Positions 128 to 12,123 of a stretch of 60,729 nucleotides of DNA are shown here, in pieces; within the stretch, counting starts at the first letter, position 1; each line of letters begins with the position of its first letter. The DNA is taken from positions 1-60,729 of IMG/VR virus record IMGVR_UViG_3300036760_000452. The stretch is one strand, 5' to 3'. Source of the stretch: a virus. The translations under genes and the position numbers were made by a program. The notes beneath the pieces are model-generated. The model searched no databases. It was given only the letters and a program-made list of their open reading frames with translations, and was not told the origin of the DNA.

Positions 128-628
128 TCTGGCCTTTTCGGCCTCTTCGCGCTCGCGTAGTTTCGCGAGATGCTCTATTGCCCTCGCAGAGAGCCTCTGC
201 ACGTAGGCGAGAAGATCCTCGCCCGGCTTGCGTGGGTGCGTCTCGACCGTCTCCTCGTACACGAGCCGTTCCGTCACGTCGGCGAACCTGTCGTCGCGCG
301 CCGGCATCAGCCCACGACCCTCGATACTGTCGAGGTACTCACGGAGCGAAACGTCCGGTTTCACGCCCCTGATGAACGCCTCGCCGATCTGGTTTCGGTT
401 CCGAAGCGTCTCGCGACTCAAGCGCAGGAGCAGCGATGGCGGAGGGAAGAGCGCCTCGTGCTCGAGCACGTACTCGCACGCCCACACGAAGCTAGCGTCG
501 TCGACGTGCCTCGCTAGGATCTTGTGGTAGGTCGAGATCATGTCCGTCGTGACCTTGCGCCGGAACACGGCGGCCAGGCCGTGAAGTTGGACGGAGACGG
601 TCTCGATCAGCATCGCCACCGATTTCAC
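116..628 (-). CDS. Putative replication accessory / helicase-loader-like protein
   Basis: The product has 170 residues. The N-terminal half is helical with the pattern ISTYHKILARHVDDASF, then LFPPPSLLLRLSRE. That resembles N-terminal segments of phage helicase loaders and replication accessory proteins, in which a helical repeat precedes an FP.P motif. The C-terminal 40 residues are charged and probably coiled coil. The gene follows the initiator at 625..1680 with a 4-base overlap, which supports a replication role. An operator-bearing promoter (647..675) lies just upstream inside the previous gene. The function is inferred from position and weak pattern similarity only. Confidence 0.4.
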   Translation of the reverse strand: MKSVAMLIETVSVQLHGLAAVFRRKVTTDMISTYHKILARHVDDASFVWACEYVLEHEALFPPPSLLLRLSRETLRNRNQIGEAFIRGVKPDVSLREYLDSIEGRGLMPARDDRFADVTERLVYEETVETHPRKPGEDLLAYVQRLSARAIEHLAKLREREEAEKARGVA

Positions 629-1680
629 TCCTTGAGCCGCGGAAGTACCATAGCAAAGCCCACGTCAGCTTTCAAGTGCTTTTCTTCGACCGGGGTTTCA
701 TCCGGGTGTTCCTCGTAGTACCGGCGCACGGCCTCTTCGCCGGCGCGCTTGTTCTTGGCCTCGAGCTCGTCGCGCGGCGCCCCGGCGGCGCCCACGGGCG
801 GCCCGTCCTCGGAGAGCGCAGCGCGCTGGAGCTTCTCGATCCGATCCCGCCCCTTGTGGACGAACAGGTTCTCGAACCCGAGGTACGCAGTGCCCTTCTC
901 CGAGCCGTTGAACAGCGGGTCGCGCAGCGCGCCCTCGACCGCCAAGCACAGCCCGCGGACCTTGGACGCCATGTCTCCTGGCTCTTCCCGGAGTCTGGTT
1001 ATGAGACGCCTTCGGCGCTCCTCCGTCCACTGCGCCCGGACCTGGTTCGTCTTCAGGCGCCAGAAGTCGAAAACGAGGTGCGCACCCTGAGACTCGTTCA
1101 GGCTCCTTGCGGAAGCCGGTACGTCGGTCGCTCTGACGATCGCAGGCTGAACGACCGCTACCCCCGTCCCGACGTCAGTCGGGACAGATCCGTTGTTCGT
1201 TGTTTCCGTTGTTGTAGTAGGAGTAGAAGAAGGAGACGGAGAAGAAGGGGACCTACGGCCGTAGGTCCTTCGAGCGCTATCGATGGTATCCTTGCTACCG
1301 TCCTTGTCTTGAGCCTTTTTGCGAGGAACATTAGGGTTTCTCGCACTCATGGCTCCAAAAGCTCCGCGCTTTTCCCTCAAGGTTTCATCACGAACCTGAC
1401 GCCTGCTGAAGATAATTCCTTCGGAATTTTTTGAAAAAACGTTGTGATTTTCCAGCTCTGCCAGTAGCCTCCCGACGATCGTTTTGGAGCTTCCGACCAT
1501 CTTCGCTAGCTCCTCCGTGGAGATGCCGTGGCCATTCGTGGCGAGGTGCCCGTAGGGATCGCCCTGGTGTGTGAAGCACAGGATGTCGGCCCACAGACCG
1601 CGGGCGGCGAGGGACGACGCGCGCAGGCCGATGTCCTCGAGCCAGTCCCCGGGGTAAAACTGGAAGGACGGGCGCTTCAC
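625..1680 (-). CDS. Replication initiation protein (winged-helix, DnaD-like)
   Basis: The product has 351 residues. The N-terminus (SFQFYPGDWLEDIGLRASSL, residues 5-24) is the hallmark of phage replication initiators with a winged-helix domain (DUF1376-like proteins), ending in a recognition-helix-like SSKTIVGRLLAELENHNVF. Residues about 140-180 are a Ser/Thr/Pro-rich linker. The C-terminal part (VFDFWRLKTNQVRAQWTEER onward) is helical and DnaD-like. Such proteins bind the phage origin and recruit the host helicase. It starts with a GTG overlapping the stop of the preceding winged-helix gene (1677..1979), so the two are probably co-translated. Confidence 0.65.
   Translation of the reverse strand: MKRPSFQFYPGDWLEDIGLRASSLAARGLWADILCFTHQGDPYGHLATNGHGISTEELAKMVGSSKTIVGRLLAELENHNVFSKNSEGIIFSRRQVRDETLREKRGAFGAMSARNPNVPRKKAQDKDGSKDTIDSARRTYGRRSPSSPSPSSTPTTTTETTNNGSVPTDVGTGVAVVQPAIVRATDVPASARSLNESQGAHLVFDFWRLKTNQVRAQWTEERRRRLITRLREEPGDMASKVRGLCLAVEGALRDPLFNGSEKGTAYLGFENLFVHKGRDRIEKLQRAALSEDGPPVGAAGAPRDELEAKNKRAGEEAVRRYYEEHPDETPVEEKHLKADVGFAMVLPRLKE
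647..675 (-). promoter_or_regulatory. Sigma70-like promoter with internal operator (AGC-N8-GCT)
   Basis: On the minus strand TTGAAA (670..675) and TATGGT (647..652) are separated by 17 bases. The spacer contains the shared element, which reads AGCCCACGTCAGCT on the plus strand at 657..670. The promoter lies inside the 3' end of the initiator gene and would fire into the gene at 116..628 and then across the circle junction into the exported-protein gene. Six other promoters carry the same element in the same place. Confidence 0.65.
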
Positions 1681-1979
1681 TCGGCCACCTTCGCGAGCCC
1701 AGCGCGCTCGAGAGATGCCAGTGCGGCTGGTAGGGCGTCATCGCGCAGCGTGAGCGCCCAGGCGAGTTCTTTGGGCCCAGACGCCTTTACGACGCCGTCT
1801 CCGCCCTCCGTCGCGTTGTCCGTGGCGAGCAGCAGCAGGCCGACGTAGGCCATGCGCGCCTCGAGCGGCAGGTCTCGGAAGTGAAAGTCCTGGATCAGGC
1901 TCCGCGGCAGCTTCACCCACGGTGGCCGACGGTCTCCGTAGTGCTGGAACCTTTCGAACCCTTGCAGGAGGATCTTCAT
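1677..1979 (-). CDS. Small winged-helix replication protein
   Basis: The product has 100 residues. Its N-terminus contains FQHYGDRRPPWVKLPRSLIQ, a motif frequent at the start of phage replication-initiation proteins, followed by helices consistent with a winged helix (DALPAALASLERAGLAKVAE at the end). It may be the DNA-binding half of a split initiator with the next gene. The ATG has no recognisable Shine-Dalgarno sequence. Instead a perfect 7-bp hairpin ends 3 bases upstream (1983..1999) and a larger structured region lies beyond it, suggesting that translation is controlled by RNA structure. Confidence 0.55.
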   Translation of the reverse strand: MKILLQGFERFQHYGDRRPPWVKLPRSLIQDFHFRDLPLEARMAYVGLLLLATDNATEGGDGVVKASGPKELAWALTLRDDALPAALASLERAGLAKVAE

Positions 1980-1982
1980 GGT

Positions 1983-2104
1983 GCTAGCTCTCAGCTAGCG
2001 TCCCCAGAGAAGGCCCGACGAGGCGGCAGCCGGTGGTGAGCCGGCGTTTCCTCGGGCGTGGACCGAGGGGAGGCACCTCCCCGCCGGGCCATCTCTGGGG
2101 ACGC
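1983..2104 (-). other. Highly structured non-coding segment (RNA element or origin candidate)
   Basis: Two arms at 1998..2017 and 2085..2104 are complementary over 20 positions with one mismatch (at 2011/2091). The enclosed 67 bases can form three more hairpins on the minus strand: GGGGAG/CTCCCC with a 4-base loop, CTCGG/CCGAG, and GCCGG/CCGGC. Together they form a closed multibranch. A further perfect hairpin, GCTAGCT-3-AGCTAGC (1983..1999), abuts the start codon of the winged-helix gene. No gene of its own is convincing here. It could be a cis-regulatory RNA, a processed ncRNA, or a double-strand or single-strand origin next to the initiator genes. Confidence 0.6.
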
Positions 2105-2110
2105 CGGCTC

Positions 2111-3175
2111 CTACGCTCCTGGCTCCGCCCCAGGCCAGTTGCACGCCGGACAGGTCCCGAACACGTCGAAATCCTCTCCTCCGCACCGCGGGCACTTCGT
2201 CGGCTTCTCTGCCGGTGGTGTCTCCTTGCGCTTCTCGATGAGCGCACCGGTGAGGTTTGGATGCGCAGGCCTTGCGGTCCTGCGCTCTTTCTGCGGCTCC
2301 GAACCTTGCGCAACGGTGGGTGGCGAGGTCGCCTCCGGCGTCCCGTTGGGCGCCTCGGCACCCCCCTCGTCTTTGGGTTTCTGTGGCTGTGGCTCCACGA
2401 CCACAGCGGCGGTCTCGATGACCTCGGATTTGGCTGGAACGCCCAGGTTGCCCAGGATCGGGTCAGAGACGGCAGGGCCGGGTCCTACGAAGCGCTGCCC
2501 CCGTAGAGGCCCCGTGGCGGCCTGCGTCTCGGCGGAGGGGCCATCCTGCGGGCCAACGCCTCCCGCCAGGACGTCCTCGGCGATCGGCACGCCGCCGAGA
2601 GGCTCCGGAAAGTGGAACCTGGCCATGTCGCCGACCGCGCGCCACTCGAGCATGTTCGTCGGCCGGGTCTGCCACGGCCCGTCCTTCTTCCACAGCCCAG
2701 CCTTCTTCGCGTCGTCGATCGAGAACGTGCGGACGAAGCTCTGCGCGTAACCCTTGCGCTGGGCGACGCACACCCCGCGCGCAGTTCCTTCGTCGACGCT
2801 GCCCTCGCAGTAGCTCTTGAAGGTCCCCGGCACAACGAGGCCGCTGTTCTGGATGAAGCCGATCGCTGCCCAGCCGCGCCACGAGAGCACGCCGTTCACC
2901 ACGACGCAGGCCTGCAGGCCGCCCATGAGCCCCATCCCGCGCTCGAGCCCTGCCTGGATGGCGAGCGCCGCCTGCCCTTCGTTCATCCCGCGCGGCGCCA
3001 CGTTGTTCTTGACCGCGGTGCGCGCGAAGTTCATGAGGTCCTGGAGGTTCTCGAGCTCGATCCCGCGCCTACCGAGCGCGACCGACTGCGCGCGCGTGGC
3101 GACCGCCTTCACCTCGGACGGGCTCTGGACCACGATCTCCTGCGGCGTCTCTGTCTGCGGCTGTTCTTCCGACAT
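2111..3175 (-). CDS. recT: RecT-family single-strand annealing recombinase
   Basis: The product has 354 residues. Residues about 40-200 match the RecT fold: the N-terminal MNFARTAVKNNVAPRGMNEG, the central VLSWRGWAAIGFIQNSG, and the typical SIDDAKKAGL..GPW..RPTNMLEWRAVGDMARFHFPE segment. RecT proteins coat and anneal single-stranded DNA made by a partner exonuclease. The C-terminal 150 residues are a Pro-rich tail ending in a CPRC/CPAC zinc ribbon, an unusual addition that may bind a partner or SSB. It directly follows the RecE-like nuclease and overlaps its stop region, forming an exonuclease/annealase pair. Confidence 0.85.
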   Translation of the reverse strand: MSEEQPQTETPQEIVVQSPSEVKAVATRAQSVALGRRGIELENLQDLMNFARTAVKNNVAPRGMNEGQAALAIQAGLERGMGLMGGLQACVVVNGVLSWRGWAAIGFIQNSGLVVPGTFKSYCEGSVDEGTARGVCVAQRKGYAQSFVRTFSIDDAKKAGLWKKDGPWQTRPTNMLEWRAVGDMARFHFPEPLGGVPIAEDVLAGGVGPQDGPSAETQAATGPLRGQRFVGPGPAVSDPILGNLGVPAKSEVIETAAVVVEPQPQKPKDEGGAEAPNGTPEATSPPTVAQGSEPQKERRTARPAHPNLTGALIEKRKETPPAEKPTKCPRCGGEDFDVFGTCPACNWPGAEPGA

Positions 3176-10895: not shown

Positions 10896-11078
10896 GGCCG
10901 AAAAGTGGCAGCGGGCAGAGAGGGGGGGGCCCCCGGTAGGTGGATGGGGGGCCGGCCTCCAGGAACCGATAGGGTGCCCGCCTGGCGCTCGAGGCGCGCA
11001 GCCGAATGGGCTGACCGATAACGCCGCGGATAACCTAACTCCTTTAGAATCAATGACAGTAACAAGGGGACATAAGTT

Positions 11079-11106
11079 TCATTATCGGAAGCTGCTGACA
11101 GGTCAA
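11079..11106 (-). promoter_or_regulatory. Second leftward promoter candidate without operator
   Basis: On the minus strand TTGACC (11101..11106) and TAATGA (11079..11084) are 16 bases apart, in the AT-richer part of the control region. The shared AGC-N8-GCW element is absent, so this promoter may escape the control that acts at 10867..10895. It would give a leader of roughly 200 bases before the first leftward gene. Confidence 0.35.
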
Positions 11107-11266
11107 TGACTTACAACCCTCAGATGTGACTCGAGTACGGCAGCAGCCCCCCTGCTCTCCTCTCATCCAGGCCGCCGGCAGCGCATTCGGGAGGCCACGG
11201 GCGCCGAGCTGCCGCCGGCGAATCGCGGTCGATTGCGCCCTGGGCCGCATCTTTCGCGCTCTACCT

Positions 11267-11794: not shown

Positions 11795-12123
11795 GCAGCA
11801 GTCCGGTTACGTCCGTTCGAGACGCATCGGTCAGCGTCGTCTTCGTCTACCGCCCGAACAGCCCCAGGAGGCTGGTGTGCGAGGCCGAGGTCGTCTTCTC
11901 GGACGGCCCGCTGGGGGGCATGAAGCTGGTCGGCTTCTCGCTGTGGCGCTCGCCCGAGGGCGAGGTCTACGTCACCTTCCCGTCCCGTGCGGTCGGGGCC
12001 TCGACCGATCGGCGCTTCTTCGACTACCTCCGATCGGTCGAGGGGAACGGAGCGGACGCGAAGCGGGTCAAGGCGTGGATCGTCGACGCCTACAGGCGCG
12101 AGCGCGAGCCCGAGCAGGCGTAG
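11791..12123 (+). CDS. SpoVG-like protein (weak)
   Basis: The product has 110 residues. The order of strands and motifs (VVFVYRPNSPRRLVCEAEVV, GMKLVGFSLWRSPEGEVYVT, FPSRAV, then a final VKAWIVDAYRRE helix) resembles SpoVG-family proteins, which are small DNA/RNA-binding regulators with a swapped beta sheet and a basic C-terminal helix. It is the second gene of the rightward operon, where a regulator would be expected. The resemblance is by pattern only. Confidence 0.45.
   Translation: MSSSPVTSVRDASVSVVFVYRPNSPRRLVCEAEVVFSDGPLGGMKLVGFSLWRSPEGEVYVTFPSRAVGASTDRRFFDYLRSVEGNGADAKRVKAWIVDAYRREREPEQA

What the first reader, a model, noticed from the sequence alone, without database searches (positions are those of the whole stretch)
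1983..2104. Structured multibranch element before the replication initiators
A 20-base near-perfect inverted repeat (1998..2017 with 2085..2104) encloses three further hairpins and is followed by a perfect 7-bp hairpin 3 bases before the ATG of the winged-helix gene, which lacks a Shine-Dalgarno sequence. The region sits between recT and two initiator genes. It could be a cis-regulatory RNA that controls initiator synthesis, a stable ncRNA, or a replication origin. I do not recognise the structure as a known RNA family.
Basis: partly seen in the sequence, partly recalled or inferred. Interest (0 to 1): 0.75.

Follow-up and report, generated by a model that had tools for sequence, protein, structure and literature searches.

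The report
Phage initiator leader: hairpin plus origin repeats
Just before the replication-initiator gene of an uncultured phage sits a large, evolutionarily maintained hairpin element joined directly to short DNA repeats (GCTAGC) that mark the replication origin in a wide group of phages, so this spot probably controls how the phage starts copying its DNA.

Summary
The inverted repeat is real: the strongest one in the 60.7-kb record, with significant folding on both strands. All flanking genes are on the minus strand, so the relevant RNA is the minus-strand recT-to-initiator leader. A relative (IMG/VR 3300037310_000607; RecT 59% identical) keeps the element in the same gap with different letters. 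On a structure-blind alignment all 20 basal pairs persist, with 6 two-sided and 2 G-U changes; slid registers pair only 38-51%. Its T.T mismatch sits 11 nt from the first GCTAGC in both phages. The "7-bp hairpin" before the ATG is better read as two palindromic GCTAGC repeats 11 bp apart. GCTAGC is enriched 30-fold at genes of this initiator family: 36/36 "QHY" members carry two or more copies, against 1/34 "QHF" members. These are very likely origin iterons, usually inside the initiator gene as in phage lambda. Best reading: a compact origin/operator region whose leader RNA carries a long hairpin controlling initiator mRNA (processing, attenuation or shielding). The iteron part is strong; the hairpin's action is inferred. 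No Rfam family matches. Other family members carry a different three-way-junction RNA with a U-tract at the same place.

The parts
1997..2105 (-). Multibranch stem-loop: basal helix of about 26 pairs (lower 1997-2010 with 2092-2105; upper 2012-2023 with 2079-2090), apical part with two hairpins
   Evidence: folds; inverted repeat; covariation with the relative
2011..2091 (-). T.T (U.U) mismatch formed by positions 2011 and 2091, kept in the relative, 11 nt from the first GCTAGC in both
1994..1999 (-). GCTAGC iteron 1, abutting the hairpin
   Evidence: same place in the relative (L016 6322)
1983..1988 (-).
1505..1510 (-). Single further GCTAGC inside the second initiator gene (role uncertain)
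1370..1459 (.). AT-rich stretch (40% GC in a 67% GC record, tied lowest of the window), candidate unwinding element
   Evidence: function inferred
1677..1979 (-). 100-aa initiator DNA-binding domain, 'QHY' clade
   Evidence: phrog_26426; model pLDDT 93.7; closest solved folds are plasmid Rep/RepA initiators
625..1680 (-). O-like replication initiator gene
   Evidence: phrog_345, E 1.8e-5
2111..3175 (-). RecT-like annealing protein gene, upstream neighbour
   Evidence: phrog_561, E 2e-13; 59% identical homologue at the same place in the relative

Best explanation
The recT-initiator gap is a compact replication-control region. (1) GCTAGC repeats next to the initiator start are iterons, bound by the winged-helix domain of the initiator. 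They mark the origin and, lying on the start of the initiator gene, probably also give autoregulation. (2) Directly joined to them, the leader of the initiator message carries a long hairpin (about 26 pairs with a fixed U.U mismatch, capped by a multibranch). Transcription from recT must pass through it, because under 20 nt separate hairpin and ATG and no promoter-like site is found. The hairpin acts in cis on this RNA, most likely as a double-strand processing, attenuation or shielding element that sets how much initiator is made relative to the recombination genes upstream. Shown: the structure, its covariation, its position, and the iteron association. Inferred: protein binding, origin activity, and the RNA-level function.
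For: Hairpin: strongest inverted repeat of the record, z -5.6. The relative has it in the same gap, z -6.7. A structure-blind alignment shows 20/20 basal pairs kept in both, 6 two-sided and 2 G-U changes, while slid registers pair 38-51%; the register anchored on the mismatch gives 24 pairs, 10 two-sided, 0 broken. G.U but no A.C inside the shared helix in the minus-strand sense favours RNA. No frame over the element is conserved. Iterons: a scan of IMG/VR with only the phased GCTAGC pattern returned 80 loci, 15 of which (the relative included) hold this initiator domain over or beside the repeats. In 80 loci chosen by protein, GCTAGC density is 2.73/kb at the gene against 0.091/kb elsewhere; the main spacings are 11 and 21 bp, and AS and LA dipeptides are written as GCTAGC far more often than in other genes (p 1.6e-26 and 4e-38). 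QHY initiators 36/36 against QHF 1/34. The predicted domain is closest to plasmid Rep/RepA initiators, one solved with DNA (5kbj), Z 7.3-7.8.
Against: Only two sequences carry this hairpin, so covariation rests on one comparison; the apical hairpins do not align. Most family members lack any such hairpin, so it is not essential to the origin type. The window has only two or three GCTAGC copies, with flanks (CGCTAGCT, AGCTAGCA) off the family consensus YGCTAGCR, and the usual in-gene iterons are missing, so the working origin could instead lie in the O-like gene. No transcript data.
Confidence: 0.55

Rival explanations
1. The hairpin acts as DNA at the origin: extruded as a cruciform or exposed on a single strand, it serves as a primase/primosome (single-strand initiation) site or as a structure recognised by the initiator beside the iterons.
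For: It abuts the iterons at a fixed 11-nt phase in both phages; it also folds as DNA, z -4.85.
Against: G.U in the minus-strand sense without A.C inside the shared helix suggests RNA pairing; 14 iteron-bearing family members lack it.
Confidence: 0.22
2. It is a transcription terminator or attenuator between recT and the initiators, of the kind without a U-tract, overcome by an antitermination system.
For: Other members of the initiator family have a three-way-junction hairpin with U8 10-20 nt before the start codon, an attenuator-like element at the same place.
Against: No U-tract follows the hairpin in the window or the relative; the terminator scan finds none there; a covariance model of the U8 type does not hit the window or the relative.
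Confidence: 0.15
3. The hairpin is passive: a remnant of a mobile palindromic element, or a palindrome kept perfect by template switching, and the two GCTAGC copies are decayed iterons.
For: Apical parts are unlike each other; window iteron flanks are off consensus.
Against: No other copy in the record or in phage DNA; the T.T mismatch is kept in both phages, which template-switch correction would erase; same gap, same register to the iteron.
Confidence: 0.08

Closest known systems
Phage lambda / Stx phage ori inside the O gene (PMC7466680)
   Same: Iterons bound by the initiator plus an AT-rich tract, in or at the initiator gene.
   Different: The iteron is the 6-8 bp palindrome (Y)GCTAGC(R) at 11/21-bp phase, not the longer lambda iteron; in the window the clear pair lies before the start codon; a large hairpin adjoins it.
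Plasmid Rep/RepA initiator domains (PDB 4pql, 4pt7, 4pta, 5kbj)
   Same: Winged-helix initiator domain that binds origin DNA; best solved-fold matches.
   Different: 16-17% identity and Z only 7-8; different iterons; phage, not plasmid.
RNase III processing sites of phage early operons (T7, lambda; from general knowledge)
   Same: Long (>22 bp) intergenic RNA helix with an internal mismatch in an early polycistronic message.
   Different: Multibranch cap and fixed junction with iterons; cleavage never tested.
U8 three-way-junction leader RNA before QHF initiators (found here: L150, L142, L122 and copies)
   Same: Same position and same plan: helix, one mismatch, helix, multibranch with two hairpins.
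   Different: Ends in U8, carries a CCGCCAAC-like motif, lacks GCTAGC iterons; its covariance model does not match the window.

Membership tests
Lambda-type phage origin | repeated initiator-binding sites in or beside the initiator gene | tested here: met
   GCTAGC repeats at 11 bp next to the gene; 30-fold family-wide enrichment and QHY/QHF split. Few copies in the window itself; binding not shown.
Lambda-type phage origin | AT-rich unwinding tract next to the iterons | tested here: inconclusive
   The tied most AT-rich 90 bp of the record lies in the O-like gene, but about 520 bp from the iteron pair.
Lambda-type phage origin | initiator binds the iterons and replication starts there | not testable with these tools
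   needs binding and replication assays
Any Rfam 15 family (C4 antisense RNA among them) | covariance-model score above the gathering cut-off | tested here: not met
   0 matches in the window and in 20 related loci; only sub-threshold chance hits
Intrinsic terminator | GC-rich hairpin followed by a U-tract | tested here: not met
   sequence after the hairpin is GCUAGCUGAGAGCUAGCACC; the scan finds none on the minus strand
U8 three-way-junction leader RNA (model R1) | match to the covariance model | tested here: not met
   window scores about 5 bits for one hairpin only; no match in the relative
RNase III processing site | RNA helix of about two turns in a transcribed spacer | tested here: met
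   about 26 pairs with one mismatch in both phages; transcription itself is inferred
RNase III processing site | staggered cleavage in the helix | not testable with these tools
   needs RNA work

The most novel reading that the evidence does not exclude
The hairpin and the iterons are one device: an RNA/DNA switch in which the nascent leader hairpin, held at a fixed helical phase to the iterons, couples transcription of the initiator gene to origin firing; and a whole phage initiator family carries lineage-specific structured leader RNAs in this slot.
Probability: 0.15. Interest if true: 0.85.

Novelty: new variant of a known kind. Interest (0 to 1): 0.6.

Why it matters
It gives a testable rule for finding replication origins in uncultured phages: a QHY initiator predicts phased GCTAGC repeats at or in its gene (36/36 against 1/34). 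It also shows that DNA-level iterons leave a peptide trace (DASxxLA) in the initiator. The structured leader elements in the same slot, absent from Rfam, point to an RNA layer of control over phage replication initiators that is little described.

Tried and rejected
Close relatives by single-protein scans with initiator, RecT and exonuclease gave nothing; only the terminase led to the relative. DNA pattern of the stem in IMG/VR: none. RecT pair in GTDB genomes: none. RecT relatives at about 30% identity have other gene orders. RNAalifold on the pair was weak because MAFFT misplaces the inner arms, so only the outer 20 pairs were counted on that alignment. Stable ncRNA: no promoter-like site. 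Coding overlap: no conserved frame. The claim that structured leaders are generally enriched before this initiator is only modest against intergenic controls (12/78 with z < -3 against 12/189), so it is not used as proof. No solved-structure match by sequence beyond chance; no Pfam or NCBIfam family covers the initiator domain. Literature searches found no earlier report of GCTAGC phage iterons in the open library; subscription papers are unchecked. No host was assigned.

Full report
OBSERVATION. The inverted repeat 1998-2017 / 2085-2104 is there, with a single mismatch (2011/2091), and it is the strongest inverted repeat of the whole record (score 17; 1 of 40 shuffled records reaches it). RNA folding gives -89 kcal/mol, z -5.6, on the minus strand and z -4.0 on the plus strand; DNA parameters give z -4.85. 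The flanking genes are all on the minus strand: exonuclease VIII-like (4064-3177), RecT-like (3175-2111), a 100-aa replication-protein domain (1979-1677) and an O-like initiator (1680-625). The element fills the noncoding gap between the RecT stop and the initiator ATG. Rfam has no match, and there is no second copy in the record.

A RELATIVE. The terminase led to IMGVR_UViG_3300037310_000607 (61% identical terminase). Its RecT is 59% identical, its initiator N-domain about 41-43%, and the same gap holds a hairpin with z -6.7 but different letters (window CGTCCCCAGAGA/TCTCTGGGGACG; relative GTGCCCTCTGA/TCAGAGGGCAC). On the MAFFT alignment, made without structure, 20 of 20 basal pairs form in both, 6 with changes on both sides and 2 switching between G-C and G-U; sliding the 3' partner by 1-3 columns drops pairing to 38-51%. 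Anchored on the shared T.T mismatch, 24 pairs hold, 10 with two-sided changes and none broken. The mismatch is 11 nt from the first GCTAGC in both. In the minus-strand sense the helices hold G.U pairs in both phages and no A.C inside the shared helix, which favours RNA of the transcribed strand. This is one comparison: it shows that pairing is maintained, not what it does.

THE SMALL HAIRPIN IS AN ITERON PAIR. GCTAGCTgagAGCTAGC is two copies of the palindrome GCTAGC 11 bp apart. GCTAGC occurs 6 times in the record against 20.7 expected from base composition. The relative has three copies at 11-bp steps in the same place and four more at 10-11-bp steps inside its initiator gene. A scan of IMG/VR with the phased pattern alone returned 80 loci; 15 of them, the relative included, carry this initiator domain over or next to the repeats. 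In the reverse test, 80 loci chosen by the initiator protein have GCTAGC at 2.73 per kb around the gene against 0.091 per kb elsewhere. The main spacings are 11 and 21 bp, two reading phases occur about equally, and Ala-Ser and Leu-Ala codons are written as GCTAGC far more often than in other genes (69/174 against 13/370; 71/177 against 8/506), so the constraint is on DNA. The repeats leave a DASxxLA trace in the protein. Initiators with QHY in the motif FQH[YF]KDRxPPW have at least two copies in 36/36 cases, those with QHF in 1/34. The 96 copies listed give YGCTAGCR; the two window copies deviate in the flanks. The initiator domain (pLDDT 93.7) is closest to plasmid Rep/RepA initiator domains, one solved with DNA, though at modest Z 7.3-7.8 and TM about 0.54. 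The layout matches the lambda origin, whose iterons and AT-rich tract lie inside the O gene (PMC7466680). In the window a tied most AT-rich stretch of the record lies in the O-like gene at 1370-1459, a candidate unwinding element.

WHAT THE HAIRPIN DOES. Fewer than 20 nt lie between the hairpin and the ATG and no promoter-like site is found, so the initiators are most simply transcribed from upstream, through the hairpin. No U-tract follows, so it is not a standard intrinsic terminator. A long intergenic helix in an early operon fits an RNase III-type processing or message-shielding role, or an attenuator that needs a phage factor. Other members of the family support the idea that this slot is used for RNA control: L150/L158, L142/L138 and L122/L123/L128 carry an 83-nt three-way-junction RNA ending in U8, 10-20 nt before the initiator start, with 11 covarying pairs over three distinct sequence groups and no Rfam family. 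Its model does not match the window, so it is a parallel, not a homologue shown here. A Gemmatimonadaceae genome bin has yet another long hairpin there (L110, z -4.06). Against intergenic controls the general enrichment is modest (12/78 against 12/189), and 14 iteron-bearing members have no such hairpin.

VERDICT. The GCTAGC-iteron reading is strong (about 0.8). The hairpin as a cis-acting RNA element of the initiator leader is favoured (about 0.55), with a DNA origin structure as the main rival (0.22).

Noticed in passing
L150 2405-2486, L158 2405-2486, L142 2403-2486, L138 147-230, L122/L123/L128 2412-2495: Conserved 83-nt three-way-junction RNA with U8 directly before QHF-type initiator genes, 11 covarying pairs, no Rfam family; looks like a new phage attenuator or small RNA.
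   Followed up: partly
window 1249-1268: Perfect 20-bp palindrome GGACCTACGGCCGTAGGTCC inside the O-like initiator gene, next to a strand-asymmetric purine tract (1210-1250) and low-GC stretches: a possible alternative origin core.
   Followed up: no
initiator genes in L112-L191, about +310 to +360: Most family members encode an ETETETE-like run, i.e. a purine-rich hexamer tract just after the iteron position; a candidate unwinding region shared by the QHY and QHF clades.
   Followed up: partly
L110 about 2878-2978: Long hairpin (z -4.06) immediately before an iteron-bearing initiator gene in a Gemmatimonadaceae genome bin.
   Followed up: partly
window 625-1979: The window's QHY domain is a stand-alone 100-aa protein followed by a second O-like initiator, whereas relatives have one longer protein with in-gene iterons; it may be a split or replaced initiator.
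   Followed up: no
window 11999-12043 and 11036-11125: Second strongest inverted repeat of the record, about 1 kb from the other tied most AT-rich stretch, near where gene direction changes.
   Followed up: no
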